Positions 32,118 to 46,538 of a stretch of 64,000 nucleotides of DNA are shown piece after piece. Where the stretch lies: positions 1-64,000 of the forward strand of contig NZ_JQKJ01000013.1 of NCBI RefSeq assembly GCF_000745975.1. Direction: 5' to 3'. The position numbers were made by a program, and so were the translations under genes. Within the stretch, counting starts at the first letter, position 1; each line of letters starts with the position of its first letter. The notes under the pieces are model-generated. The model saw only the letters and a list, made by a program, of their open reading frames with translations. It did no database searches and was not told the origin of the DNA. Source of the DNA: Desulfobacter vibrioformis DSM 8776 (GTDB lineage Bacteria > Desulfobacterota > Desulfobacteria > Desulfobacterales > Desulfobacteraceae).

Positions 32118-33323
32118 TTATTCATGGCGCAACGCGTCAATGGGATCCATACGGGCTGCCTTCAGGGCCGGGAAATACCCGAACACCACACCCACTGCCG
32201 CAGAAAAGAAAAACGCAATAATGATGATGGAGATATCCGGAGCAAAGGGAATCCCCAGCATTTTTGTCCCGCCAAAGGAGGCTGCCAGGGCCAGGATGAT
32301 GCCGAAAATGCCGCCAAAAGAGGAGAGCACCACGGATTCCACCAGAAACTGGAGCAGCACTTCATGTTCATAGGCGCCGATGGCCAGGCGGATGCCGATT
32401 TCCCGGGTGCGCTCGGTCACGGAGACCAGCATGATGTTCATGATACCGATTCCCCCGACCAGGAGGCTCACCGCAGCCACGGCACCGAGAAGAGCGGTCA
32501 TGGTTTTGGTGGTGGAGGTGAGCATGGTGGCAAGTTCCTTGGTGTCCATGATCCTGAAATTGTCCTCTTCATTGTCGGCGATGTGCCGGCGTTTTCTCAA
32601 CAGTGACTGGATGGCGGCCGACGCCGTGGTGGTGGATGCATCGCTTTTTACAGCCACCTGGATAAAGGGAATGTCCTTGTTGCCGGAAAACCGCCGCTGG
32701 ACCGCTTTCATGGGCATGATGACACAATCATCCTGGTCCCGGCCCATGGAGGAGTTGCCCTTGGCCTCTAAAAGGCCGACGATCTGACAGGAGACCCTGC
32801 CCAGGCGCAGTTTTTGCCCCACAGGGTCTGTGTCGCCAAACAGGTTTACCCTGATGGTGTCCCCCACCACACATACGGTTCGCCCGGCGTTGATTTCATT
32901 TTGGGAAAAGGTTCGCCCGGCTTTTATGGTCCAGTTGCGTACCGTAAAAAAATCGTTGGTGGTGCCGGTGATGCTGGTACTCCAGTTCTGGTTGCCCGCC
33001 ACGGCCACGGCAGATGCGGATACGGCCGGGGCCACGCCTGCCAGATCATTGATCTGCTGTTCAATGGCCTGGACATCTTTGACCGAAAAATTCGGGGCGC
33101 CTGCAGCCCCGCCAGGCCCGTGGCGCTGGCCCGGGCTAATGAGCAGCACATTGGTGCCCATGGCGGCAATCTGCTGGGTCACCTGGGCCGTTGTGCCGTT
33201 ACCGATGGTCACCAGGGTGATCACGGCGGCCACGCCGATGATAATACCTAAAATGGTGAGCACCGAGCGCATGACATTGCGCCGGATGCCCCGGAAAGCC
33301 AGGATAAACGTGTTCCGGATCAT
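32118..33323 (-). CDS. macB: MacB-type ABC transporter permease
   Basis: A 401-residue inner-membrane permease of the MacB/FtsX family without its own ATPase domain. One N-terminal membrane helix (about 20-42) is followed by a periplasmic MacB-PCD domain of about 230 residues and three C-terminal helices with GIGIMNIMLVSVTERTREIG. Its start overlaps the ATPase stop by four bases. With the adaptor and outer-membrane protein encoded upstream it should form a tripartite mechanotransmission pump, exporting a drug, peptide or lipid. Confidence 0.92.
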   Translation of the reverse strand: MIRNTFILAFRGIRRNVMRSVLTILGIIIGVAAVITLVTIGNGTTAQVTQQIAAMGTNVLLISPGQRHGPGGAAGAPNFSVKDVQAIEQQINDLAGVAPAVSASAVAVAGNQNWSTSITGTTNDFFTVRNWTIKAGRTFSQNEINAGRTVCVVGDTIRVNLFGDTDPVGQKLRLGRVSCQIVGLLEAKGNSSMGRDQDDCVIMPMKAVQRRFSGNKDIPFIQVAVKSDASTTTASAAIQSLLRKRRHIADNEEDNFRIMDTKELATMLTSTTKTMTALLGAVAAVSLLVGGIGIMNIMLVSVTERTREIGIRLAIGAYEHEVLLQFLVESVVLSSFGGIFGIILALAASFGGTKMLGIPFAPDISIIIIAFFFSAAVGVVFGYFPALKAARMDPIDALRHE

Positions 33324-34051
33324 CGGTCCTGGCCTCCTTTTGCTGTCGGGGTCTGCCCGTTTTCAACGTCTGCCACCTGGCCGTCCACAAAGTGAATGAT
33401 CCGGTCCGAGTAAGCGGCCATATCGGATTCATGGGTGACCATGACCACGGTGATTTTCTGCTCCTGGTTCAATTGTTTTAAAAGTTCCATGATTTCATGG
33501 CTTTTGGCTGTGTCCAGGTTACCCGTGGGTTCGTCGGCAAATAACACCGAAGGTGTGGTGGCAATGGCCCGGGCAATGGCCACCCGCTGCTGCTGCCCCC
33601 CGGACAACTCGCCGGGGGTGTGGGCTTCGCGCCCTGCAAGCCCTACCTGTTCAAGGGCCTTGCGTGCCAGGGCTTTGCGTTTTTTGGGCGGCATGCCTCT
33701 GTACACCAGAGGAAGTTCCACATTTTCCATGGCCGTGGTCCGGTTAAGCAGGTTGAATCCCTGGAATACAAAGCCCAGGTAAAATCTTCGCAGGGTAGCC
33801 AGCTGTTTACGGCTCATATGGCTGACCTCCACCCCCCCAAACTTATACTGGCCGGATGTGGGGGTATCCAGGCATCCCAGAATGTTCATGCAGGTGGATT
33901 TGCCCGAGCCGGACGGTCCCATCACCGAGATAAACTCCCCGGATTCAATGGACAGATCAATGCCGCGCAAGGCAAAAATCCTGGCTTCATTGCTGCCGTA
34001 AGCCTTGGTGACCCGGGTCAGGGAAATCAACGCATGTTTTTTGTCAGCCAT
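33320..34051 (-). CDS. MacB/LolD-type ABC transporter ATPase
   Basis: A 243-residue ATPase. Walker A GPSGSGKSTCMNI, Q-loop in GFVFQGFNLL, signature LSGGQQQRVAIARA, Walker B VLFADEPTGNLD and switch His in VTHESDM are all intact. It powers the permease encoded by the next gene, with a four-base overlap. The C-terminal tail contains VADVENGQ. Confidence 0.93.
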   Translation of the reverse strand: MADKKHALISLTRVTKAYGSNEARIFALRGIDLSIESGEFISVMGPSGSGKSTCMNILGCLDTPTSGQYKFGGVEVSHMSRKQLATLRRFYLGFVFQGFNLLNRTTAMENVELPLVYRGMPPKKRKALARKALEQVGLAGREAHTPGELSGGQQQRVAIARAIATTPSVLFADEPTGNLDTAKSHEIMELLKQLNQEQKITVVMVTHESDMAAYSDRIIHFVDGQVADVENGQTPTAKGGQDR

Positions 34052-34055
34052 GGCG

Positions 34056-35357
34056 TTACTTGCCCTTTGTGGTCGCGGAAATAATAACTTCGGTGCCTTG
34101 GGTGATCTCCCCTTCCAGAATCTGGGTGTGAATGCCGTCGCTCAGGCCCGGTTTGACAGGCACAGGCTTTGGTCGCTTGTTTTCATCCAGAATCCATAGG
34201 GTGTCCTGGTTTTTGCCGCCTGTGATGGTCACGTGCTTGGCCGACTGGCCGCCGCGCCTGGACGGACCTGGCATGAACATCTTTAACAGCGATGGTTTGC
34301 TGTTGTTTTCCCCGGGTTTGGGCATAGAGAATCTCAGGGCCGCACTGGGTACGGACAATACCTGGTCCGCCTGCTCAACAATAATGTCTGCCGTGGCAGT
34401 CATGCCCGGGCGTAAGGCCAGGTCGCCGTTGTCACAGGTCATGATGGTTTCATAGGTGACCACCCCGTCCGTGGTGGTGGCATTGAACCGGACCTGCAGT
34501 ATTTTTGCCTCAAATTTGCGTTTGGGATAGGCATCCACGGTAAAGTGGGCGTTAAGCCCTTCCTTGACCACACCGATGTCTGCTTCGTCCACATCCACGT
34601 TCAGCTTCATCCGGGTTAAGTCTTCTGCCAGGGTAAACAGCACCGGGGCTTCAAATGAGGCGGCTACGGTGGCGCCTTTTTCAATGTCCCGGGTCAGGAC
34701 AATACCATTCACAGGGGAGATAATGTCTGCCTTGGACAATTCGGTCAACGTGCTGTCCAAAGAGGCCTGGACTTCGGCCACACTGGCTTCGGCACTGGCC
34801 TGGTCAGCCAAGGCCCGGGTATAGTTGGCCTGGGCTTCATCCAGGTCGGTCTGGGCCGGTACTTTGCCGCCGCTTAATTCATGGACTTTTTTCAGGTTTT
34901 TTAATTTCCGGTCTGTCTCTTTCACTGTGGCCTGGGCCTGGCGCACTGATGCCCGGGCTGAAGCCAGGGATGCCTCGCTTTTGCGCACCTGGGCCTCAAG
35001 ATCCGTGATGTCCAGCCGGGCAAGGACCTGTCCTTCGGTGACCTGGTCGTTGTAATCAGCAAAAACAGCCTTGATGGTGCCGGATAATTCACTGCCTACT
35101 TCCACCTCGTTGGTGGGTTCCAGGGTGCCTGTGGCGGAGACTGTTACGTGAATATCGGTGACAGCGGCAGGCGCGGTTTTAAAGGCCATTCCCGGGTCCG
35201 GGCCGGAACTGCCGCCTGGCAGGCCCTGGGGCAGCAGGAAAAAATACGCCCCGCCTGCGGCAAGTGCCAGAACCAATAGAATTATGAAAATGCGCTTTTT
35301 GCCTTTTGGGGAGTGGGCTGCGTTTAATCTGTCATTGATATCATCGGTTAAATCCAT
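34056..35357 (-). CDS. macA: Periplasmic adaptor (MacA/HlyD family)
   Basis: A 433-residue membrane-fusion protein. The start at 35357 is chosen because CCGGAG lies six bases before the ATG and this reading does not run into the upstream gene. An N-terminal membrane anchor (about 20-42, FIILLVLALAAGGAYFF) is followed by a barrel-sandwich half (TLEPTNEVEVGSELSG), a long coiled-coil hairpin (about 115-215) and a beta-barrel. It bridges the permease and the TolC-like protein. Confidence 0.92.
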   Translation of the reverse strand: MDLTDDINDRLNAAHSPKGKKRIFIILLVLALAAGGAYFFLLPQGLPGGSSGPDPGMAFKTAPAAVTDIHVTVSATGTLEPTNEVEVGSELSGTIKAVFADYNDQVTEGQVLARLDITDLEAQVRKSEASLASARASVRQAQATVKETDRKLKNLKKVHELSGGKVPAQTDLDEAQANYTRALADQASAEASVAEVQASLDSTLTELSKADIISPVNGIVLTRDIEKGATVAASFEAPVLFTLAEDLTRMKLNVDVDEADIGVVKEGLNAHFTVDAYPKRKFEAKILQVRFNATTTDGVVTYETIMTCDNGDLALRPGMTATADIIVEQADQVLSVPSAALRFSMPKPGENNSKPSLLKMFMPGPSRRGGQSAKHVTITGGKNQDTLWILDENKRPKPVPVKPGLSDGIHTQILEGEITQGTEVIISATTKGK

Positions 35358-35373
35358 GGGAACTCCGGAGATG

Positions 35374-36879
35374 TTAAGGGGTTTGCTGTGCTTCAGATCT
35401 GTTTTGTCCGCCTGTGGTGTTGTTGGATCCGGCCGGGGACCAGCCCCCGCCAAGGACTTTATAGAGGGTGATCAGGTTGGATACACAGGTGCCCTGGCTT
35501 GTGGCAAGATCGCTTTCATAGGATAACACGGTCTGTTGGGATGTCAGTACTGTGCTGAAATCAATAAGGCCGGATTCGTATTTTTTTTTGGCCAGGTCTT
35601 CGGCCATCCGGGCCTGTTCAGCGGCAACACTTAGATGGTCCAGACGGATCTGCTCCTTGGCATAAGCAATCAGGGCGTTTTCCACCTCTTCCAGGGCCGA
35701 CAGGATGGTTGTTTCATACTGGATCAGGGCCTGTTCCTGTAATGAGCTTTGGACTGCAATGTGTTTACGGATAGAGCCTGCATCAAACAGGGTATGGGAC
35801 AGACTTGCAGCCAGGGACCGGGCCCAGTGAGATGGATCAAGGGCATTGTCAATAAGTTCGGCAGGGTTCAGGGCGTTGACACCGATGGAACCGGACAGGG
35901 TCAGATCGGGATAAAGGCCTGCCGTGGCTACCCCCACCTGGGCGGTCTGGGCAATGAGCTCGTATTCAGCTTCCCTGATATCGGGCCGCCTTCGCAGGGC
36001 GTCCACGGGAAGCCCCACGGCAATGGCTGGCGGAAGCTGGGGCAACGGCCTGGGATCTGTCAGTTTATTATTCAAGGTGCCCGGGGCAAGGCCCGAGAGC
36101 ACCGCCACCCGGTTCATGGCCTCGGCCAGGGTGGATTCAAGGGCGGGAACCTGGGCTTTGGCACGTTCCAGGCTGTACCGGGCCTGGTGGACATCCAGCT
36201 CATCGGTAAGACCTGCCTGGTTCTGCCACTGGGTCAGCTGGAAAGATTCGGTCTGGGAGGCAATGTTCTGATTGAGCACGTGAAGACGTATCTGGGCGGT
36301 CCGTACATCAATGTAACTGCCGGCAAGGTCTGCCACAAGACTGACCAAGGCGTCCCGCCATGCTTCCTGTTTGGCGGCCAGGCTGGCGTCCGCGGCTTCA
36401 ATGGAGCGCTGAATCCGGCCGAACAGATCAATTTCCCAGCTGGCATCAAGGCCGGCATTATAGGATTTTGAAACGGTGCCGGTACCCTTTTCATTGCTGG
36501 TCCCGGCCCAGGACGCCCCGCCCGAGGCATTGACGGCGGGCAGTTCATCTGCCTTTTCAATTGCCTTGAGCAGCCTGTACTGGCGAATGCGCTCCAGGGC
36601 CAGTTTTATCTCCAGATTGTTTTGAACCGCACAAAAGATCAGATCCGTGAGCACCGGGTCATTGAGTACCGTCCACCATTGGGCGAGCTGTTCAGGGGCT
36701 GAAGGCGTTTGCGCCAACCCCTCCTGCATGGGCGCATGCCAGGCCCCTTTCGGGAAAAGGTCCGGCTGTTTGTAATCCGGTCCCACGGCGTTGCAGCCCG
36801 CAAAAAGAGTCACAAAAAGAAAAATCATACACATGACTGGCCAGGGGGGGCCTGACAGAAAAGAAAAGCGTTTTTGCAT
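35374..36879 (-). CDS. NodT-family outer-membrane efflux lipoprotein
   Basis: A 501-residue TolC-like channel. The signal peptide ends in a lipobox (LFVTLFAGC, Cys29), typical of the RND/NodT outer-membrane lipoproteins. VGPDYKQP follows immediately, and two TolC repeats contain LPVDALRRRPDIREAEYEL. First gene of the four-gene efflux operon. Its stop is 17 bases before the adaptor start. Confidence 0.93.
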   Translation of the reverse strand: MQKRFSFLSGPPWPVMCMIFLFVTLFAGCNAVGPDYKQPDLFPKGAWHAPMQEGLAQTPSAPEQLAQWWTVLNDPVLTDLIFCAVQNNLEIKLALERIRQYRLLKAIEKADELPAVNASGGASWAGTSNEKGTGTVSKSYNAGLDASWEIDLFGRIQRSIEAADASLAAKQEAWRDALVSLVADLAGSYIDVRTAQIRLHVLNQNIASQTESFQLTQWQNQAGLTDELDVHQARYSLERAKAQVPALESTLAEAMNRVAVLSGLAPGTLNNKLTDPRPLPQLPPAIAVGLPVDALRRRPDIREAEYELIAQTAQVGVATAGLYPDLTLSGSIGVNALNPAELIDNALDPSHWARSLAASLSHTLFDAGSIRKHIAVQSSLQEQALIQYETTILSALEEVENALIAYAKEQIRLDHLSVAAEQARMAEDLAKKKYESGLIDFSTVLTSQQTVLSYESDLATSQGTCVSNLITLYKVLGGGWSPAGSNNTTGGQNRSEAQQTP

Positions 36880-37127: not shown

Positions 37128-38000
37128 CTAATGGGATTTGGATTCAGGGCGTTTGCGTTCATTATCAATTTGTAATGTCAATGAAGCCGTCAGCTTCATC
37201 TGCAGATATTTGTCCTTCTCCTGCTCAGGTGCATCCACTTTAATAAAATACCGGATAAACCACCTGCCCGGATTGGGTAGAGGAATGGAAACCTTAGATC
37301 CATTAACGTTTGTGTGCGGGTAAAAATTGTCTTCAGCCAGGGTGGAAAACCCCATGTACGTGGCATCCCAGGTCCCTTCGCCTGTATATGGCTTCCCATC
37401 CAGGACAACTTGAAGTTCCAGGGTATCCCCGGGTTTGAGGCCAAAAATATCGGTTGCAGGTATAAGTTCCAGGGGCAGACCCAGATTTGCAGGAAAAGGC
37501 CCTTTGGGGATGCCGCATTTAACATAGGTTTTGGCGTATTGTTTGGAATAGTAGCTTGTTATTACCGTGCCAAGCCGATTTTTGATCTTGTCAATGGATT
37601 TGATGGCATGCCGTTCTTTGCCGTTGGTATCCTTGAAAAAGGTGTAATAGCCTGGCGTTGTTTGCGCTGTCACCCCCCAGATACCGGGGGCATTGTATTC
37701 CACCATGTGCGAATGCAGTCCCTTGGCGTCCATGATCTCAACGACCCGGGCCTTGCCGTCAGGGGCGATCACCTGGACCAGGTTCAGTTTTTTGCCCCGG
37801 ATGGCGTCGGCCACGGGGATGAAGTGGCCGTAACAGAAAAAAAACGGAATGGATTTGCCTTCATCGACCGTGAACCGGGTGGGCTGGATGTAAAGGGTGT
37901 GGCCCAATGCACTGGCTGCCGTAAGACAGATCAGTGCCGGGATCAGAAAAGGTAGAAAACTGTGTGCTAAACGGGAATGGGCATTGGTATGTTGTGTCAT
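37128..38000 (-). CDS. DUF4198 secreted protein, NikK/NikM-like
   Basis: A 290-residue exported protein with a signal peptide (about 12-33, FLPFLIPALICLTAASALGH). After cleavage it begins with HTLYIQPTRFTVDEG, the usual start of DUF4198 proteins, which accompany nickel or cobalt transporters. The remainder is beta-rich (GDTLELQVVLDGKPYTGEGT). It starts immediately after the TAA of the Cys-rich gene and closes the FeoAB/ABC cluster. A metal-binding accessory role in the periplasm is likely; the metal is unknown. Confidence 0.8.
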   Translation of the reverse strand: MTQHTNAHSRLAHSFLPFLIPALICLTAASALGHTLYIQPTRFTVDEGKSIPFFFCYGHFIPVADAIRGKKLNLVQVIAPDGKARVVEIMDAKGLHSHMVEYNAPGIWGVTAQTTPGYYTFFKDTNGKERHAIKSIDKIKNRLGTVITSYYSKQYAKTYVKCGIPKGPFPANLGLPLELIPATDIFGLKPGDTLELQVVLDGKPYTGEGTWDATYMGFSTLAEDNFYPHTNVNGSKVSIPLPNPGRWFIRYFIKVDAPEQEKDKYLQMKLTASLTLQIDNERKRPESKSH

Positions 38001-38189
38001 TTATTTTTCCTTTGTTTCTGCCTCTTCCATGGAATCGAAAATGGCGTTTGACCTGTTTTTTTTGCTGCCTGCGCATGCATTACATCCGGCACACGAGGGG
38101 GAATCAGCATTTTTTATTTTTTTCCATTGCCGGTAAAGGTAGAAAACCGCACCACACACGGCAGCGGCGACAATCATGTTTTCAATCAT
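38001..38189 (-). CDS. FeoB-associated Cys-rich membrane protein
   Basis: A 62-residue protein. The start at 38189 has TTAGGAG before it. One membrane segment (MIENMIVAAAVCGAVFYLYR) is followed by a Cys cluster CAGCNACAG and a charged tail. This is the arrangement of the small FeoB-associated family, thought to help FeoB-dependent iron entry. Its presence here, seven genes after feoA, supports a single iron/metal cluster. Confidence 0.8.
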   Translation of the reverse strand: MIENMIVAAAVCGAVFYLYRQWKKIKNADSPSCAGCNACAGSKKNRSNAIFDSMEEAETKEK

Positions 38190-38199
38190 TATTTTTCTC

Positions 38200-39483
38200 C
38201 TAATCACTGATAGTTGCGATAACCATGGCAACCAGTCCGTAAAGCCCGGTCAGGGCCACCGTGGCTGTCCGCATACCCCGGGGCCATTGGCCTGTAAATA
38301 TTTTTGCACCACCGGCAAAGAGCAGTGCACAGATGCCCATGCCGGACAAAGACCATATGGTGCCGGGCACGAGCCTGGCCTTGACATACCTGCTGTCCGG
38401 GGTGGGGCCAAGTGCCAGGGCAAAGGGAAACAGCAGATTCCGGAACCGGGTCGCGGGTGTGGCAGTGGCCCTGGACATGGTGTGCTCATAACGTTTAACC
38501 GGAGAAAAAGAGTCGTCCAGGAGAACTGCCCGTATCACCGTACCATCGGAATACACCGCCGTGCAGTACAAGGGATTAAAAATCAGTTTCAAGTCCATAC
38601 GGTCAGGATCAAAATTGTTTAACGGCAATGGTATCAGCCGGTAGTTGTCATAGGACATAAGGCTGATGCCGCCGTTGCCCTCAAGGGCTAAACCGTAAAA
38701 TTTCTTCTGGCTGTTTTCAGATACCTGGATGGCCCTGATCCTCAATTCAGGCGAAATCGGGGTTTTCTTGATCTCAGGTTTGTCATTCACCCGTTTGACA
38801 TGAAAAACATGATAATCGCGGTCCACAATGAACACACCTTCGTCAAAGGGTTTAAGCACCGAAAATTTACCGTTCACAGATCTGGCAGGGAATTTAAATC
38901 CCTTTTTTTTAAGGGTATAGGTGTACATTTTTGTGAACACCGGATCCACAGCATTCTCATCGGCATTGATGAACTCCATATCACTGTCAGTCATGCGGAA
39001 CCGGTCTTCGGGAAAAACTAGCCTGGCCTGGCCCGGGTTGGATTCCAGCAGGGGGTAGAACGGCACATGGGGGGATTTTTCAGCAAGATCTTTGGCCTTA
39101 AGCTCAAGAACACGGCGCTGGGCCTTGATCGTTATTTTATCAAAGGTCTGTCCGTTCAGGGTTATGGGCAGAAGGCCCCGGATCTCCATGTTTTTATAGT
39201 AGATAAACGGCAGATGGCGTTCAAAGGTTTTGCGGGGCACATAGGTGCCGTCCGCTTTCATATAAGCCTGGTTGCTGTGGTGGTCCAAGGCAAATCCTTT
39301 GGCAGGGTCCGGCACCTTTCCCACTATTTTTTCCATTAGAATAAAGTCCTGGCTCACAGGGCTGTAGAACAGATGGGTTTTTTCAACTTCATCCATAAAA
39401 ATTTTGTCATACAGCATGGGCAGATATACCGCAGATACCAGGATGACCAGGACATAATAAACGGCCTGCGCTTTGGGATTCAT
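38200..39483 (-). CDS. DUF4857-like membrane protein
   Basis: A 427-residue protein. The start at 39483 has AGGAGGGTAGGATA upstream and overlaps the permease stop by one base. A membrane helix at the N terminus (about 8-26, VYYVLVILVSAVYLPMLY) precedes a large extracytoplasmic domain with propeller-like strands, and two or three helices end the protein (WSLSGMGICALLFAGG, TATVALTGLYGLVAMVIA). The family assignment is from remembered resemblance and genomic context with a small ABC exporter. Function unknown. Confidence 0.65.
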   Translation of the reverse strand: MNPKAQAVYYVLVILVSAVYLPMLYDKIFMDEVEKTHLFYSPVSQDFILMEKIVGKVPDPAKGFALDHHSNQAYMKADGTYVPRKTFERHLPFIYYKNMEIRGLLPITLNGQTFDKITIKAQRRVLELKAKDLAEKSPHVPFYPLLESNPGQARLVFPEDRFRMTDSDMEFINADENAVDPVFTKMYTYTLKKKGFKFPARSVNGKFSVLKPFDEGVFIVDRDYHVFHVKRVNDKPEIKKTPISPELRIRAIQVSENSQKKFYGLALEGNGGISLMSYDNYRLIPLPLNNFDPDRMDLKLIFNPLYCTAVYSDGTVIRAVLLDDSFSPVKRYEHTMSRATATPATRFRNLLFPFALALGPTPDSRYVKARLVPGTIWSLSGMGICALLFAGGAKIFTGQWPRGMRTATVALTGLYGLVAMVIATISD

Positions 39484-40154
39484 TATCCTACCCTCCTGCA
39501 GCGAAATCTGAATACCGGTAAAAGCACTGCCAGCATCATCAACCCCAGGGGTACACTGAGCAGTGCCAGACATGGTTCGTATGCACCGGGGTCAACAGTT
39601 TGCAGGTAAAGCCCTGTGATGCCGGCCCCAATGAGCAGGTTGACTGCCTTGAGCCGGAAATTGGGTTCGAGCAACGCCAGTGCCATGCCAAGATAGGCGC
39701 CTGCCCCGGCCATGGTCCAGGGCAGGGCGGTGAGCAAACTGATTTTTATACCCTGCCAGGGAAAGAACAGGCCTGTAATCAGGCCAAGTCCGAAAAGGTC
39801 GGCCAGGGCCATGGCGCAATAAACGGTCAGCCCCACCAGAAGATGAGTCAGGGCCACAAACCCAGGAGGCACAGGCAGATGAAGGGAAAGGCGGAACCGC
39901 TCCCCCCACATTTCAGGAAGAAACTGAAAACAGGCAATCAGAATACCGGATAAAAGCGGGATATTTTTTAAAAGGCCAAAATGGATCTGGCCCAAGTGAA
40001 GTACGCGATACCACACCACCTCCGGGTGGTCCAGCATAAACAGCCTGCGGGTGGCAACATAGAGGTATAAAAGAATACAGATGTGGGCAGCGATCACCAG
40101 TAAGCCGGGTCCGCGGATTTTGAAAAATTCTTTTCGGAAAATGGCCTGAATCAT
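39483..40154 (-). CDS. ABC transporter permease-like membrane protein
   Basis: A 223-residue integral membrane protein with about six hydrophobic segments (ARGPGLLVIAAHICILLYLY near the N terminus; LLVGLTVYCAMALADLFGLG; LLTALPWTMAGAGAYLGMAL). It has no recognisable conserved signature but sits exactly between an ABC ATPase and a DUF4857-like gene, with one-base overlaps on both sides, so it is very probably the transmembrane part of the exporter. Confidence 0.75.
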   Translation of the reverse strand: MIQAIFRKEFFKIRGPGLLVIAAHICILLYLYVATRRLFMLDHPEVVWYRVLHLGQIHFGLLKNIPLLSGILIACFQFLPEMWGERFRLSLHLPVPPGFVALTHLLVGLTVYCAMALADLFGLGLITGLFFPWQGIKISLLTALPWTMAGAGAYLGMALALLEPNFRLKAVNLLIGAGITGLYLQTVDPGAYEPCLALLSVPLGLMMLAVLLPVFRFRCRRVG

Positions 40155-41065
40155 TAATACCTCCCCGTGTATCCGATGAATGCATCCTCAAGGCTTAAGG
40201 GAATAGTCTCAAGCAGGTTCCCGGGAATGTCTGTATTTTTAAGCGCATTTTCCAGTTCCCGGACCGGGGTGAACGTAAACAGATCCCAGTGATCCTTATG
40301 AATTTCAATATTTTTGAGCATGGGGCAGGCAGACAGCATCTGTTCCCGGTTCATGCCGGAGGTGCTGCCATTGGCTGAAACCGGCAACCGGAAGCAGGAA
40401 AAATCAGTTTTAAACTGCGCCAGGGAGGTGGTCATCAAATTTCCGCCGCGTTCTAGGAAGATCGCCTCATCTACAAAATTTTCCATATCCTGGATCACAT
40501 GGGAGGTTAAAAATACAGTGCGGTTCCCCTGGGCCAGATAGTCGCGCATTTCATCCAGAAACAGCCGTCTGTATCCGGCATCAAGCCCGATGGAATAGTC
40601 ATCAAGGAGCAGCAGTTCAGGCTGCTGGGCCATCAAAAGTCCCAGCACCACCTGGGAACGCTGGCCGCAGGACATCTGCCGGATCAGATGGCCTGGTGAA
40701 AGTCCAAGCTTTTTCACCATCCGGTAGTAAATGCGTTCATCCCAACTGGGATAGAAAGGGGCATAAAATTTTTCAATCTGACGGATGGACATGAATTCAT
40801 AGGCCAGATGGCCTTCAAACAAAAGGCCGATGCGGGCCCTGGCGGCCGGCGTCAGTGCATGGGAGTCTTCACCGAACACAGTACACCTGCCGGATACCGG
40901 CCTGAGAAATCCCATTAATATCTTAATCAGCGTTGTTTTACCCACGCCGTTTTTTCCCAGAAGCCCATAAATTTTTCCCGGCGTAATGGAAAAGTTCAGG
41001 TCTTTGTAGATATAGCGTTTGCCGTATCTATGGCTAAGATGTTCAACATGAATTACAGGTGTCAT
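40154..41065 (-). CDS. ABC transporter ATPase with Asp at the catalytic Glu position
   Basis: A 303-residue ATPase. Walker A LLGKNGVGKTTLIKI, signature MSCGQRSQVVLGL, and H-loop TSHVIQD are intact. Walker B reads LLLLDDYSIGLD, with Asp where Glu normally activates water, so hydrolysis may be slow or context-dependent. The C-terminal 90 residues are divergent. It pairs with the permease-like and DUF4857-like proteins. Confidence 0.9.
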   Translation of the reverse strand: MTPVIHVEHLSHRYGKRYIYKDLNFSITPGKIYGLLGKNGVGKTTLIKILMGFLRPVSGRCTVFGEDSHALTPAARARIGLLFEGHLAYEFMSIRQIEKFYAPFYPSWDERIYYRMVKKLGLSPGHLIRQMSCGQRSQVVLGLLMAQQPELLLLDDYSIGLDAGYRRLFLDEMRDYLAQGNRTVFLTSHVIQDMENFVDEAIFLERGGNLMTTSLAQFKTDFSCFRLPVSANGSTSGMNREQMLSACPMLKNIEIHKDHWDLFTFTPVRELENALKNTDIPGNLLETIPLSLEDAFIGYTGRY

Positions 41066-41365
41066 ATGGCATATTCTGGCAGGCGTCTGCAGCGGGCGGC
41101 AGAGGCCGCTTTTATGTTAAATATTTTTAGGATATAAGGAAAGTGCCGGGCCAGTTGGGAAATAATGCGATCCTGAAGGATGGCAGAAAGGTAAGGAAAC
41201 TGGGAAACTGTGGTCCGGCACTTGTATTGATTTGCAGCATCCGGCAGTTTTGGCGCGTATATAATGGCCCCGGTCATGGTTATCGGTTTTACAATCATGG
41301 TCAGGGCCATTGTAACAAGCCGCATCTGATTCGTGTATGCCTTAACTGCTGAATAAAATAGGCAT

Positions 41366-42178
41366 TTATTTCATATCCACAGCTGTGATCCAGATCACGG
41401 CGTCCCTGGAGCACTCTTTTCCTTTATAGGAACCTTCCGGGTCCAGGCCAAGGGCGGCAAATCCCCACCATCCGGCCTTGGGAATGCCAAAGGTAAATAC
41501 GCCGTTGTCATCGGCAAAAATGGTCTGCAGCACAAAGGCGTCCTGGGGGGCAACTGCCGAGGCTTGCCTGGCAAATGCTTTTTTATCCAGCAAGGGCTTA
41601 TGGTTCATGAATTCGATCTCAATTTCGGCGTTGGGAACAGGTTTGCCCTTGAACAGGACTTTGCCCTGAAATACATTGCCGGTCCAGCGGTCATAGGGTT
41701 TGCAAAGGGGGACGATTTCGCAGTCAAGACCTACAGGTTCCATCCAGGCACCGGGCTCTCCGCCTACATTGACGATCACTTTGGTGCTCTGCTGGATATA
41801 GGCATCTTCTCCAGCCTCAAAATAGGGTGCCGGTACCAGGCAGAATACATGGTCCCCCCCCCTGGCTGTATACTCGGTTTCATATGCTTTGCCGGAATTG
41901 GTCAGGCTTGTCCAGTTAATCGGGGTAAGGGTGGACAGCAGATCCGTTTTCTTGGGTTCGTTTTCCCCCCTGGAGCGGACAACGAAAAATTGTTCCGGAC
42001 TTCCCATGTCCATGGTGTGACCGGCTTCAAATGGGTGGGTGAACACCAGAGCCAAAGGGATTTTCCCTCCCTTGGTAAGGGCTGCTTCAGGCGTATAAAT
42101 CATCTGAAAGTGAGCAAATGCCGGTACCGTAAATGCCAGGATCGCCAGGGTGCTGATGGTGGTGATAACATGTTTCAT
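41366..42178 (-). CDS. DUF4198 secreted protein
   Basis: A 270-residue exported protein: signal peptide ending near AHFQ (LAILAFTVPAFAHFQMIYTP), then a DUF4198-type domain with LALVFTHPFEAGHTMDMG, DHVFCLVPAPYFEAGEDAYI and a carboxypeptidase-regulatory-like fold (GKPVPNAEIEIEFM). It ends with an Asp/Met-rich segment. The ATG at 42178 has AAGGAG 12 bases upstream; a TTG at 42184 has better spacing and would add two residues. Likely binds or delivers a divalent metal or assists the exporter; inferred from context. Confidence 0.8.
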   Translation of the reverse strand: MKHVITTISTLAILAFTVPAFAHFQMIYTPEAALTKGGKIPLALVFTHPFEAGHTMDMGSPEQFFVVRSRGENEPKKTDLLSTLTPINWTSLTNSGKAYETEYTARGGDHVFCLVPAPYFEAGEDAYIQQSTKVIVNVGGEPGAWMEPVGLDCEIVPLCKPYDRWTGNVFQGKVLFKGKPVPNAEIEIEFMNHKPLLDKKAFARQASAVAPQDAFVLQTIFADDNGVFTFGIPKAGWWGFAALGLDPEGSYKGKECSRDAVIWITAVDMK

Positions 42179-42226
42179 CTTCAAAATTTTCTCCTTTTTA
42201 ACGTTTTTGAGTATGCAGTGGCCGGG

Positions 42227-42553
42227 CTATTCGGTGATTTCCTTGCCGTCCACGGTAATTTCATGCCCTTCTCCGGCGTCAAACGCTACCTTGTAGTCGC
42301 CTGCGGGTTTTTTAAATGTAAACTCACTGTCGTCATCCATTTTGCCATTGATCAGCATCTTTCCGGTACCGTCTTCAACACGTATTTCAACGCCTGCGGC
42401 AGAAGATCCGTCGGAAAATCCGCCTTCGCAGGTTACACTTCCGTCGCCATTGTCATAGCAGGAACACAACGGGGTATGGGCCTGGCAAACCGGGGTCAGA
42501 AAGAATCCAAACACCATGGCAGCAAAGATTAATACAGATACTTTCAGTTTCAT
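42227..42553 (-). CDS. Small secreted protein with regulatory-like beta domain
   Basis: A 108-residue exported protein. The ATG at 42553 has AAGGAG upstream. The signal peptide (LIFAAMVFGFFLTPVCQA) precedes a mature part starting HTPLCSCYDNGDGSVTCEGG, which is Cys-rich, then a carboxypeptidase-D-regulatory-like strand region. It lies between feoB and a DUF4198 gene and probably works with them. No enzymatic residues seen. Confidence 0.7.
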   Translation of the reverse strand: MKLKVSVLIFAAMVFGFFLTPVCQAHTPLCSCYDNGDGSVTCEGGFSDGSSAAGVEIRVEDGTGKMLINGKMDDDSEFTFKKPAGDYKVAFDAGEGHEITVDGKEITE

Positions 42554-42596
42554 TTTTTTCTCCTTGTAAATTTGTAAAATTGGCCCGGCAGGCCAT

Positions 42597-45089
42597 TCAG
42601 GCAATGGCCTGCCGGACAGGGTCAAATTCTGATTTTGTTTTTATAAAGCCTGTGGCAATGGTTGTGCCCAGGGCCATTGCGTAAAAGACCCCCATGGCCT
42701 GGAGCCCGTTTAATCCCAGAAGGGTGCCGCCGGTAAATATTAACGTGGCCGCACTGATGCCCAGCACCATGGGATAAAACATGCCGAACAGCATCCACTT
42801 GACAGATCCGGACTGGAGTTTAACGGCAATGGAGGTGGCCAGGCACGGCGGGTAAAGCACCATGAACATCATCAGGGCCAGGGCATGAAGCGGCGTAAAC
42901 CCGTCTTCACTTTTGGCCATGCGTGATTCCAGGGAGCCGTCTCCGCCATCATCATTCTGTTCATACAAGGCGCCCAGGGTGGCCACAGCGCTTTCCTTGG
43001 CAGCAAAGGCTGACAGCAGCGCCACATTGACCCGCCAGTTAAATCCTGCAAATTGGGTTACAGGTTCCAGGGCGCGTCCCATTTTGCCCAAAAAGCTTGT
43101 ATTAATTCTTTCCTTGCGCATTTCCCGCAGCAGCCCTTTCCGGGTTTTAAACAGCTTTTTAAAGGATTTGTTTACCTTTCTGGCCACCTTATCCTTGCCG
43201 GGCTGGGCAATGGAAAAAAATTGCGGATTTATCTTCCGGTACTTTGCATTCAGGGCATCCGTGGCTTCAGGACCCTTTGCCAGCATCTTTTTATCCTTGT
43301 AGCTTTCCCAGTAGAGCACCATCTCCATAAGCTTGGCCCCGGCAAGTACTTCGGCGTAGGGCGTATGGGCAATGCTGTTCCTGAACTGGGTAATGGCCTT
43401 GTCTCTTTGGGCCTGAAAGTCAATTTTCCGCTGGGGTGAAATGCCGGGGAACTGCAAAAGGATAAAGATCACCACGGCCAGTGCCACCACAATGGAGGTG
43501 ATTTTTTTGATGAACATCCATACCCGTTCCAGGGCCCGGCCCACAACCCCCCTGAACGTGGGTAAATGGTAGGGGGGCATCTCCATGACAAAGGGTGAGA
43601 TGGGTTTGTCCTTGAGTACGGTGGTGGTCAGGAATTTGGACACGGGCAGTACCATTAAAAGGCTGATGGTGGAAATATAAAACATGGCCAAACCCTTGTG
43701 GGCGGCAAAGTAAATATTGATCAGCAGCACATAAAGGGGGACCTTGGCCAGGCAGTTGAGCATGGGAATGATCAAAATGGTGGCCAGCCTGGACCGCTCA
43801 TCCGGGATACCCTTGCAGGACATGACACCGGGCACGGCACATCCGCCCACATAAATGCCGCCAAGCACCATGGGCAGGGTGGACTGGCCGTGAAGGCCGT
43901 ACCGGCTGAACAGCCGGTCCATGATAAATGCCATTCGCGGCATGTAGCCGCTGTCTTCCATGACGGCGATCAGCCCGAAAAGAATAAAGAAAATAGGAAT
44001 GTAGTTGAGCAGGGCATTTACCGAATCCATCAGCCACAAAGCAAATGCCGAGATCAGGGGTACATCAATGAAGCCAGGGTCCGGGACCATGGCGGCCACA
44101 ACCCCCCGAAGCTTAGCCAGAAGCGGCCAGGTGTAGTTGGTCAGGTTGTATCCCTGGACAATGGAGAGATAATAAAGCAGCCAGATGACAGCCAACAGAA
44201 CAATGGGCCCCATGAATTTATGGCAAACCACGGCATCAATCCGGTCAGACATGGGTTTTTTCTTTTCAGCCGGCAGGGTCAGGCAGCCGGCAGCCACCTT
44301 GTCGGCTGCCGCATATCTGGCCTGGGCCACGGCAAGCGCTGTGTTCTGGTCATATTCCGCTTCAAATTGATTTTTCAAGCCATCCACACGGTCAAGGATT
44401 TTTGTGCCCTGGACACCTTTTTCCCTGATCAGTTTCCGGATCTCTTCATCCCCTTCCATGAGTTTGATGGCAAGCCAGCGGGCCGGATATGCTTCAAGGT
44501 CACCCGTATCCTGCCGGATCATTTCACAAATATTGTTGATAAAGGCTTCCATGGGGCCGTAATCCACCTTGAACCGGGCATGGAATGATTTTTTGCGTCC
44601 AGTGTCTGTTATGGCGTCAAACAGCTCTGTTTTTCCCAGGCCCTGTTTCATGGACGTGGCCACCACAGGCACACCTAAAATCCGGGTCAGTTTCTCTATA
44701 TCTATGGTTACGCCCCGGTTTTGCGCCACATCCATCATGTTCAGGTTCAGGATCATAGGGTTTTCCATCTCCATGACCTGGAATGTCAGGTACAGACAGC
44801 GCTTGATATTTGAGGCGTCCATGACATTGACCACGACATCGGGTTTGTCATTGAGGATAAAATCCCTTGATACCCGTTCTTCCGGGGAATAAAAGGTCAA
44901 AGAGTAGGTGCCGGGAAGATCAACCACGTCCACCCGGGTCTCCCCATATTTGTACCACCCGGACATTTTGTCCACAGTGACCCCGGGATAGTTGGCCACA
45001 TGCTGCTTGGCCCCGGTCAGGGCATTGAAGACCGTTGATTTCCCGCAGTTGGGCTGGCCGGCCAGGGCGACTAATAATCTGTCTTTCAT
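42597..45089 (-). CDS. feoB: FeoB ferrous iron transporter
   Basis: An 830-residue inner-membrane iron(II) permease. The cytoplasmic G domain has GQPNCGKSTVFNAL, VANYPGVTVDK, DLPGTYSL and LNMMDV. A helical GDI-like segment follows, then membrane gates with CAVPGVMSCKGIPDERSR and FNWRVNVALLSAFAAKE. An unusually long soluble insertion of more than 100 residues separates the first gate region from the second (after FPGISPQR, roughly residues 550-680). It overlaps feoA by four bases. Iron uptake under anoxic conditions. Confidence 0.95.
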   Translation of the reverse strand: MKDRLLVALAGQPNCGKSTVFNALTGAKQHVANYPGVTVDKMSGWYKYGETRVDVVDLPGTYSLTFYSPEERVSRDFILNDKPDVVVNVMDASNIKRCLYLTFQVMEMENPMILNLNMMDVAQNRGVTIDIEKLTRILGVPVVATSMKQGLGKTELFDAITDTGRKKSFHARFKVDYGPMEAFINNICEMIRQDTGDLEAYPARWLAIKLMEGDEEIRKLIREKGVQGTKILDRVDGLKNQFEAEYDQNTALAVAQARYAAADKVAAGCLTLPAEKKKPMSDRIDAVVCHKFMGPIVLLAVIWLLYYLSIVQGYNLTNYTWPLLAKLRGVVAAMVPDPGFIDVPLISAFALWLMDSVNALLNYIPIFFILFGLIAVMEDSGYMPRMAFIMDRLFSRYGLHGQSTLPMVLGGIYVGGCAVPGVMSCKGIPDERSRLATILIIPMLNCLAKVPLYVLLINIYFAAHKGLAMFYISTISLLMVLPVSKFLTTTVLKDKPISPFVMEMPPYHLPTFRGVVGRALERVWMFIKKITSIVVALAVVIFILLQFPGISPQRKIDFQAQRDKAITQFRNSIAHTPYAEVLAGAKLMEMVLYWESYKDKKMLAKGPEATDALNAKYRKINPQFFSIAQPGKDKVARKVNKSFKKLFKTRKGLLREMRKERINTSFLGKMGRALEPVTQFAGFNWRVNVALLSAFAAKESAVATLGALYEQNDDGGDGSLESRMAKSEDGFTPLHALALMMFMVLYPPCLATSIAVKLQSGSVKWMLFGMFYPMVLGISAATLIFTGGTLLGLNGLQAMGVFYAMALGTTIATGFIKTKSEFDPVRQAIA

Positions 45090-45310
45090 CTACGTTCCAC
45101 CTCAATAAACCGGGCTTCATCATGGCGCAGACTGATGAAATAACCGTCGATTTCCACTTCCATAGGGTCTTCAAGGGGGGCGTTGCGGACCACGTTCAGG
45201 ATGAGACCGGGATAAATACCCATATCCATCAGACGCTGGCCCAGTTTGTCCCTGATGGATAGTTTTTTGATTGTTCCGCTGTTGCCGGGTTTAAGTTCAT
45301 CCAGTGTCAT
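45086..45310 (-). CDS. feoA: FeoA iron-transport accessory protein
   Basis: A 74-residue SH3-like protein with LKPGNSGTIKKLS, RLMDMGIYPG and FISLRHDEARFIEV. The ATG at 45310 has AAAGG six bases upstream; an ATG at 45316 overlaps that site. It starts the FeoAB cluster and overlaps feoB by four bases. Confidence 0.93.
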   Translation of the reverse strand: MTLDELKPGNSGTIKKLSIRDKLGQRLMDMGIYPGLILNVVRNAPLEDPMEVEIDGYFISLRHDEARFIEVERR

Positions 45311-45430
45311 AATCATCCTTTCACTTAAATATTTTTTGTTTTTAAACTTTCTAAAATAATGAAATCTTGTTTTTTAAACGATATATACTGGGCAAATAAA
45401 TTATTTGTTAGCTTGATCTAATTCACAAAC

Positions 45431-45466
45431 GAATAACTTATTTTCATTTTTTAAGCTTTTTGTCAA
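45431..45466 (-). promoter_or_regulatory. Possible promoter and Fur-like site upstream of feoA
   Basis: On the minus strand a consensus -35 TTGACA (45466-45461) is followed after 18 bases by AATAAG (45442-45437), a 4-of-6 match to -10. A loose near-palindrome (GAAAATAAGTTATTC, 45445-45431) overlaps this -10. It only roughly resembles a Fur box, so this is tentative. Confidence 0.25.
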
Positions 45467-45503: not shown

Positions 45504-46538
45504 TTAGGATTTAAAAATTGTGAGAAGAAGCATAAGAGATATGGCAGAAAGAATTAAACCTGCCAGGGCTTCAAGTATATCTCCTGCATTTTTTGCAAAA
45601 GAGGAACGCCGGGGCAGGGGGGCAAGAAGGGCGGCTTTCCCGGCCATGGCAATTATAACGACCAGAGACAGCGTTGCTGCCATACCAAGGGAGACGGCAC
45701 AGGCCAGCATAATGGCTAACCCGGGTAATCCTAAAGACAGGCAGAACAGAACCGCTAAAACAACGCCGGGGCAGGGAATCATGCCCATGAAAACGGCGGG
45801 CAGCATGGACCTGGCATCCAGGGTTGCCCTGATCTGTTCAACAGACGTATCACTCACCGGTTTAAATTTTTTCCATACCGGCAGTTTGCGCAAAAAAAGA
45901 AACAGGCCCAGAATAATAATCAGTGAATAACTTGCAATCTGGGTGGTCCGGGTGATCGAAGCAAGGGTGCCTGAAATGGATGTCTGCAGGATAAATTTGA
46001 CGCAAAAAACCAAAGCCGCTCCGGACATCCCATGGCTGACGGCCAGGATATTGCCAAAGGCAAGGGCCTTGGGAAGTGTGGGCTTTATCGAGATAATATA
46101 GGACAGGGCAAGGGCCTTGCCGTGGCCGGGACCGGCAGCGTGTACCATCCCGTATACAACGGCCGCTGCCAGAACCCACAACAGGGGGGCCACTTTCCCG
46201 GTATTTTTTGCCTGCCGGATCAGGGCCGTCATTTTTTCCTTGATTTTCATCTGGAAAAAGATGATGCGTTCTACAATACTTGAGCCTGGGATACTTGAGT
46301 CCGGGGCGCCTGAACCCGGCGTTTGGGATATGGAAACTTCCGGTGCCGGTTGCAAAGAATCGTCCTGGTGCTGGGGAGAAGGATTGGTATTTTTCCGGGT
46401 AAACGGGTTGGCCTGGGCTGTGCCGGACGTGACCCCAAAAAGGCCCCATGCAATACCGGCTATAATGAGAAAAACAGGCCAGAACCGCTTGGGAAAAGGT
46501 CTGTCCGGGCCTAGGATGTCAGAAATATCAGGGACCAT
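45504..46538 (-). CDS. NicO-family nickel/cobalt transporter
   Basis: A 344-residue membrane protein. Hallmarks are VHAAGPGHGKALALSYI and MGMIPCPGVVLAVLF, the first containing the conserved His-x2-Gly-Pro-Gly-His metal motif of RcnA/NicO. The N terminus has a membrane segment and a Ser/Pro-rich linker (about 45-85). About six helices follow. It is encoded 190 bases upstream of feoA on the same strand and may belong to the same metal-homeostasis group. Confidence 0.88.
   Translation of the reverse strand: MVPDISDILGPDRPFPKRFWPVFLIIAGIAWGLFGVTSGTAQANPFTRKNTNPSPQHQDDSLQPAPEVSISQTPGSGAPDSSIPGSSIVERIIFFQMKIKEKMTALIRQAKNTGKVAPLLWVLAAAVVYGMVHAAGPGHGKALALSYIISIKPTLPKALAFGNILAVSHGMSGAALVFCVKFILQTSISGTLASITRTTQIASYSLIIILGLFLFLRKLPVWKKFKPVSDTSVEQIRATLDARSMLPAVFMGMIPCPGVVLAVLFCLSLGLPGLAIMLACAVSLGMAATLSLVVIIAMAGKAALLAPLPRRSSFAKNAGDILEALAGLILSAISLMLLLTIFKS

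What the first reader, a model, noticed from the sequence alone, without database searches (positions are those of the whole stretch)
37128..45310. FeoAB linked to two DUF4198 proteins, an ABC exporter, a DUF4857-like protein and two small Cys-rich proteins
Nine minus-strand genes from feoA to the last DUF4198 are closely packed (several one- to four-base overlaps), except for a gap of about 300 bases before the ABC ATPase. An iron importer together with nickel/cobalt-type accessory proteins and an ABC unit of unknown cargo could be a composite metal uptake and handling system not described as a unit. A NicO transporter gene lies just upstream.
Basis: partly seen in the sequence, partly recalled or inferred. 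Interest (0 to 1): 0.65.

Follow-up and report, generated by a model that had tools for sequence, protein, structure and literature searches.

The report
Iron-uptake operon with dedicated ABC machine
This is a conserved ferrous-iron uptake gene set found across anaerobic and phototrophic bacteria, in which the iron importer FeoB is paired with secreted metal-binding proteins of a nickel-transport lineage and with an unstudied ATP-driven membrane complex (ABC plus DUF4857) that elsewhere pairs with a different, iron-starvation-induced receptor system.

Summary
In detail: nine tightly packed minus-strand genes, feoA to the last DUF4198 gene, with one 300-base gap. The set is not a local accident. 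The order feoA-feoB-NikL-like-DUF4198-ATPase-permease-DUF4857 recurs in several Desulfobacterota families, and variants recur in alpha- and gammaproteobacteria, mostly purple sulfur bacteria. Two modules can be separated. (1) FeoAB + NikL-like protein + a distinct DUF4198 clade: an iron-linked paralogue of the nickel NikK/NikL pair, present without the ABC genes in many genomes, often beside an LbtU-family porin. (2) ABC ATPase + permease + DUF4857: the DUF4857 tree splits into two fully supported clades, one with Feo/NikL/DUF4198 (28 of 34 loci), the other with TonB-receptor/M16-peptidase clusters (11 of 11). The Bacteroides version of the second is induced 37-128-fold by iron depletion. So this is iron acquisition, not a nickel/cobalt composite. 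The ABC part resembles CcmAB/NosFY, and all 92 ATPases examined have aspartate for the catalytic Walker-B glutamate. I propose an ATP-driven periplasmic metal hand-over machine; that step is inferred. All three secreted carriers have a predicted mature N-terminal histidine, the metal-binding feature of DUF4198. I found no description of the unit in the literature searched.

The parts
45086..45316 (-). feoA
   Evidence: PF04023 4.7e-21; 4-base overlap with feoB
42597..45089 (-). feoB, GTPase-linked Fe(II) permease, 830 aa
   Evidence: PF02421/PF07670/PF17910/PF07664; TIGR00437 475 bits over cut-off
42227..42553 (-). NikL-like secreted protein; mature N-terminal His, invariant C32, C42, H97
   Evidence: NCBIfam NF058648 1.1e-14 below cut-off; conservation in 50 homologues
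41366..42184 (-). DUF4198a, Feo-linked clade; mature N-terminal His, conserved H50, H56, M58, M60
   Evidence: PF10670 2.6e-59; bimodal score distribution; beside FeoB in nearly all loci read
40154..41065 (-). ABC ATPase, NosF/CcmA/PmtA-like; Walker B LLLLDD, signature SCGQRSQ
   Evidence: PF00005; PDB hits incl. NosF; motif conservation 92/92
39483..40154 (-). ABC permease of about six membrane helices, no Pfam family
   Evidence: AlphaFold model pLDDT 86; fold hits CcmB and NosY
38200..39483 (-). DUF4857: N-terminal TM, periplasmic beta-rich propeller-like domain, two C-terminal TMs
   Evidence: PF16149 9e-76; model pLDDT 88; weak propeller hits
38001..38189 (-). FeoB-associated Cys-rich membrane protein (one TM, CxxCxxC)
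   Evidence: PF12669 4.3e-7 over cut-off
37128..38000 (-). DUF4198b, second secreted DUF4198; mature N-terminal His, invariant H59, D65
   Evidence: PF10670 3.9e-38
45436..45466 (-). promoter-like element TTGACA...ATGAAAATAAGT upstream of feoA, conserved in genus and family
   Evidence: phylogenetic footprint; not recognised as a Fur box
45504..46538 (-). NicO-family transporter, neighbour outside the conserved core
   Evidence: PF03824; directly upstream only in the window and three same-genus loci (L058-L060); scattered NicO genes elsewhere (L050, L112, L182)

Best explanation
The locus is one ferrous-iron acquisition operon. The NikL-like protein and the two DUF4198 proteins are exported and, after signal cleavage, start with histidine; they bind Fe(II) in the periplasm and present it to FeoB, which imports it (FeoA regulates or assembles FeoB; the FeoB-associated protein is a small membrane partner). 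The ABC ATPase, permease and DUF4857 form one membrane complex of the CcmAB/NosFY type. It does not pump bulk iron across the membrane but uses slow ATP turnover to drive a periplasmic step through DUF4857, most likely release or hand-over of metal between secreted carriers and the importer. A diverged form of the same complex does the equivalent job for TonB-receptor-delivered iron in other bacteria. Shown: the gene set, its conservation, the two DUF4857 lineages and their partners, the conserved residues. Inferred: Fe(II) as cargo of the DUF4198/NikL-like proteins, and the hand-over role of the ABC complex.
For: Recurrent synteny across phyla. Feo-type DUF4198a is a distinct group, 27 hits at 345 bits or more, then a gap to 233 bits; nearly all lie beside FeoB and mostly beside NikL-like genes, while the low group lies mostly beside NikM (tree). 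An LbtU-family siderophore porin gene is often adjacent. DUF4198 is a proven metal binder through its N-terminal His (PMC12537917); N-terminal His is conserved here in all three proteins. DUF4857 tree: clade A with Feo/NikL/DUF4198, clade B with TonB receptor/M16 (28/34 and 11/11). Clade-B-type genes are induced 37-128-fold by iron depletion in B. thetaiotaomicron (PMC10434189), and an apparently matching pqqL-atpX operon is predicted Fur-regulated in Desulfovibrio (PMC545781). The permease fold is nearest to CcmB and NosY. Aspartate replaces the catalytic Walker-B residue in 92/92 ATPases.
Against: The only measured DUF4198 prefers Ni(II), and Fe(II) was not reported for it in the passages read. 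No convincing Fur box was found in this promoter. Some genus members keep the ABC/DUF4198 unit but lack, replace or truncate the adjacent feoB (L059, L061, L062, L063), so the unit is not strictly tied to this FeoB. The CcmB/NosY fold matches are weak (E 1e-3 to 0.07). DUF4857 has no conserved His/Cys/Met cluster that would bind metal itself; mainly D214, D221, E256 and H228 are conserved in both clades.
Confidence: 0.5

Rival explanations
1. The ABC/DUF4857 complex is an exporter of an iron-mobilising small molecule, peptide or reductant; FeoB or a TonB receptor brings the iron back.
For: ATPase scores with exporter-type ATPases (PmtA, DrrA, NodI); clade B lies with TonB receptors that could import chelates.
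Against: No biosynthetic genes recur beside it in clade A; nearest permease folds are CcmB and NosY rather than drug exporters; invariant Asp in place of catalytic Glu suggests low turnover.
Confidence: 0.22
2. One reading: a composite uptake system for iron plus nickel/cobalt, with DUF4198/NikL serving nickel.
For: DUF4198 from Ideonella binds Ni(II) with Kd 18 nM (PMC12537917); NikL-family match; NicO gene upstream.
Against: Nickel NikK-NikM-NikL set is separate in the same genome; the Feo-linked DUF4198 forms its own group beside FeoB; no NikM/Q/O here; NicO not part of the conserved core.
Confidence: 0.12
3. An envelope iron-homeostasis or efflux device: the ABC/DUF4857 complex senses or clears excess periplasmic Fe(II) while FeoAB is active.
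For: P1B-type ATPase genes lie near in several loci and inside the operon in Desulfosarcina widdelii.
Against: The Bacteroides homologue is induced by iron depletion, not excess (PMC10434189).
Confidence: 0.1
4. Chance adjacency of unrelated operons.
For: 300-base gap before the ATPase; FeoAB and the ABC part occur apart in some genomes.
Against: FeoB within 8 kb in 21/34 clade A loci against about 1% expected from three feoB genes in 4.5 Mb (my estimate); DUF4857 and Feo-type DUF4198 co-occur in 8 of 12 genomes, Fisher p 5e-8 (genomes not phylogenetically independent).
Confidence: 0.02

Closest known systems
FeoABC ferrous iron transport system
   Same: feoA and feoB are present, standard families, overlapping
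   Different: Adds secreted NikL-like/DUF4198 proteins, a FeoB-associated Cys protein and an ABC/DUF4857 complex; no FeoC was looked for specifically
NikKMLQO nickel ECF transporter (nikK = DUF4198, nikL)
   Same: The NikL-like and DUF4198a pair are homologous to NikL and NikK
   Different: No NikM, NikQ or NikO; coupled to FeoAB; separate DUF4198 group; the true nickel set is on another contig
NosDFY copper ABC complex and CcmAB of cytochrome c maturation
   Same: ATPase and permease resemble NosF/NosY and CcmB in sequence or fold; ABC plus an extracytoplasmic partner
   Different: DUF4857 is membrane-anchored and propeller-like; no NosD was detected; catalytic Glu is Asp; partners are iron genes
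Bacteroides thetaiotaomicron BT3625-BT3633 (PMC10434189)
   Same: DUF4857, hypothetical protein, ABC ATPase in a row; induced by iron depletion
   Different: Partners are PepSY proteins, DUF4876 and a TonB receptor instead of FeoAB and DUF4198; function untested
Desulfovibrio foxR-pqqL-atpX predicted Fur regulon cluster (PMC545781)
   Same: M16-type peptidase followed by an ABC ATPase, as in loci L048 and L049, which carry clade B DUF4857
   Different: Predicted siderophore cluster; my match is by gene order and description, the published genomes were not compared by sequence
Signal-strapped DUF4198 nickel binder IsDUF4198 (PMC12537917)
   Same: DUF4198 with mature N-terminal His
   Different: Characterised protein binds Ni(II); the Feo-linked group has extra conserved His/Met residues and an untested metal

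Membership tests
Feo system | FeoB with G-domain, helical domain and gate domains | tested here: met
   TIGR00437 over cut-off; G1 motif GQPNCGKS
Feo system | Fe(II)-dependent uptake | not testable with these tools
   needs transport assay
Nickel ECF transporter NikKMLQO | NikM S-component with NikQ/NikO in the same cluster | tested here: not met
   none among the nine genes; CbiM/NikM present instead at C43 of the same genome (7e-58)
Nickel ECF transporter NikKMLQO | DUF4198 in the NikK clade | tested here: not met
   score gap 345 to 233 bits; NikK rows on one side of a 100-support branch
DUF4198 metal-binding family | PF10670 match and N-terminal His after signal peptide | tested here: met
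   cleavage site judged from sequence, not by a signal-peptide predictor
NikL family (NF058648) | score over curated cut-off of 100 | tested here: not met
   54.9 bits over the first half of the model: a NikL-like relative, not filed as NikL
DUF4857 | PF16149 over cut-off | tested here: met
   255 bits against 25
NosDFY-type ABC complex | permease of NosY/CcmB fold | tested here: inconclusive
   CcmB 8ce1_B E 1.1e-3, NosY 7o0y_E E 0.07, TM about 0.5
NosDFY-type ABC complex | NosD periplasmic beta-helix subunit | tested here: not met
   partner is DUF4857, propeller-like hits only
Canonical ABC ATPase | catalytic Glu after Walker B and LSGGQ signature | tested here: not met
   DD in 92/92 and SCGQ in 79/92
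FeoB-associated Cys-rich protein | PF12669 over cut-off | tested here: met
   30.5 against 27 bits

The most novel reading that the evidence does not exclude
ABC/DUF4857 is a previously undescribed class of ATP-driven periplasmic iron-transfer machine, an iron counterpart of NosDFY, with two ancient lineages: one serving FeoB through N-terminal-histidine carriers, one serving TonB-receptor systems with M16 peptidases.
Probability: 0.33. Interest if true: 0.82.

Novelty: new variant of a known kind. Interest (0 to 1): 0.6.

Why it matters
How Fe(II) crosses the periplasm and reaches FeoB is poorly understood. This gene set names candidate periplasmic Fe(II) carriers (a Feo-linked DUF4198 and a NikL-like protein), a candidate outer-membrane route in relatives (LbtU porin) and an energy-using accessory complex, and it shows that the same accessory complex recurs in an iron-starvation-induced locus of a gut Bacteroides. 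It turns an unannotated DUF into a testable iron-acquisition factor.

Tried and rejected
Fur box: the delta-proteobacterial consensus WTGAAAATNATTTTCAW gave at best 12/17 upstream of feoA here and no consistent site in relatives. The E. coli box gave sites only in two Chromatiaceae loci (L097, L099). A 14/17 site lies 71 bases upstream of the M16 gene in L048/L049 (p about 0.02, not corrected for the several loci tested). Foldseek for DUF4857 gave only weak, low-TM propeller matches. PDB sequence searches with DUF4857 and permease profiles found nothing. The first genome scan failed because the alignment was too diverse. The OMF/HlyD/MacB genes downstream (32118-36879) were considered and left out: they follow the cluster in five genus members but not in other families. 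The quick DUF4198 tree was disturbed by two long rows, so only the NikK split is used from it. LbtU was not found in the window's own genome, but the control set gave no positive either.
Full report
What is there. The window is contig C12 of a 4.47 Mb, 95% complete Desulfobacterota genome; same-family genomes gave contigs identical to ones deposited as Desulfobacteraceae (L055/L071, L054/L072). Pfam and NCBIfam confirm FeoA, FeoB, two DUF4198, an ABC ATPase, DUF4857 and a FeoB-associated Cys-rich protein. Two corrections: the first small protein is a secreted NikL-like protein, and the permease belongs to no Pfam family.

Is it a unit? DUF4857 is single-copy in this genome and rare: 12 of 395 genomes sampled over the phylum and 13 of 98 near relatives, patchy even within the genus. 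Around it the order FeoA-FeoB-NikL-like-DUF4198a-ATPase-permease-DUF4857 is repeated in the genus, the family and other Desulfobacterota families. A scan of one genome per species gave 80 further loci. In Chromatiaceae and relatives the DUF4198a and NikL-like genes are divergent from feoA-feoB-ATPase-permease-DUF4857; in alphaproteobacteria the blocks are permuted. FeoB lies within 8 kb in 9 of 9 gammaproteobacterial loci with full flanks. With three feoB genes in 4.5 Mb, chance would give about 1% per locus (my estimate).

Two modules. Searching 395 Desulfobacterota genomes with the DUF4198a alignment gives a clean gap: 27 hits at 345 bits or more, then 233 bits and below. I read the surroundings of 22 high-scoring hits: in all but one (L184, where the hit is near the contig start) FeoB lies beside or within a few genes of it, usually as FeoA-FeoB-NikL-like-DUF4198a, often followed by an LbtU-family siderophore porin gene (NF033652 1e-107). 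Of the eight low-scoring hits read, six lie beside NikM, including this genome's own NikK-NikM-NikL set on C43. In the tree the NikK rows sit behind one 100-support branch. So the Feo-linked NikL-like/DUF4198 pair is an iron-linked paralogue of nickel NikL/NikK that exists with or without the ABC genes. Where DUF4857 is present, the Feo-type DUF4198 tends to be too (8 of 12 genomes; Fisher p 5e-8; phylogeny not corrected).

The ABC/DUF4857 module has two lineages. The DUF4857 tree has two clades with 100 support: 66 rows, 43 of them with FeoB and 9 more with NikL-like/DUF4198 only, none with TonB/M16 genes; and 30 rows, 23 with TonB-receptor, DUF4876 or M16-peptidase genes, none with FeoB (partner families; the Desulfobacterota receptor-like protein c16 was judged by eye only, since it has no Pfam hit). 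Among non-redundant loci with 8 kb on each side, 28 of 34 clade A loci have Feo/NikL/DUF4198 and 11 of 11 clade B loci have the TonB/M16 set. The same BLAST/HMM pipeline was used for both.

Link to iron. In B. thetaiotaomicron BT3625 (DUF4857), BT3626 and BT3627 (ABC ATPase) with PepSY proteins, DUF4876 and a TonB receptor are induced 37-128-fold by iron depletion (PMC10434189). In Desulfovibrio a foxR-pqqL-atpX ABC cluster is a predicted Fur regulon member (PMC545781); loci L048 and L049 show M16 peptidase-ATPase-permease-DUF4857 in that order. Both contexts of the module are therefore iron acquisition. I found no convincing Fur box at this operon, only a promoter-like element conserved in the genus and family.

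How it may work. DUF4198 proteins bind metal through a mature N-terminal histidine (Ni, Kd 18 nM, for an Ideonella protein; PMC12537917). All three secreted proteins here have the histidine directly after the likely signal peptide: NikL-like H26 100% of 50, with C32, C42 and H97 invariant; DUF4198a H25 98% of 46, with H50, H56, M58, M60; DUF4198b H34 17 of 17, with H59 and D65. Metal capture in the periplasm is thus likely; Fe(II) is inferred from partners. DUF4857 is modelled (pLDDT 88) as TM, beta-rich periplasmic domain with weak propeller matches, then two TMs. The permease model (pLDDT 86) is nearest to CcmB and NosY, and NosF is among the ATPase's best bacterial matches of known structure. 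Those systems do mechanical work on a periplasmic partner (NosDFY from general knowledge; for CcmAB a lever role is proposed in PMC9616876). All 92 ATPases have Asp in place of the catalytic Glu and 79 have SCGQ for SGGQ, which suggests slow turnover. I therefore favour a metal hand-over machine; this last step is inference. Against a strict FeoB partnership, genus members keep the unit where the adjacent feoAB is gone (L059), replaced by a 50% identical pair (L061, L062) or reduced to a fragment (L063).

Novelty. Each family is known; DUF4857 appears in one paper of the 5.39 million searched, and I found no paper describing the Feo-NikL-DUF4198 set or its ABC partner. Absence from an open-access library is not proof of absence.

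Noticed in passing
L063:6126-7014: In one complete same-genus genome the feoB beside the unit is reduced to a fragment; in L059 feoAB is absent and in L061/L062 a different feoAB (about 50% identical) sits in its place.
   Followed up: partly
L064:8045-11938: Permease-DUF4857 pair duplicated in tandem behind one ATPase.
   Followed up: no
L070:6469-8322: Desulfosarcina widdelii carries a P1B-type heavy-metal ATPase inside the operon between DUF4198a and the ABC ATPase.
   Followed up: no
L100:11276-11950: A conserved protein of about 206-224 aa and no known family follows DUF4857 in nine gammaproteobacterial (mainly Chromatiaceae) loci.
   Followed up: no
L048:11587-14529: M16 peptidase next to the clade B ABC/DUF4857 unit and TonB-receptor-like proteins, reminiscent of peptidase-assisted iron piracy systems.
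   Followed up: partly
window:46802-48715: 637-aa repeat-like protein with no Pfam match, 84-87% identical in genus members and transcribed divergently from the NicO gene.
   Followed up: no
window:32118-36879: OMF, HlyD and MacB-type ABC genes follow the unit in several genus members, probably a separate efflux operon.
   Followed up: partly
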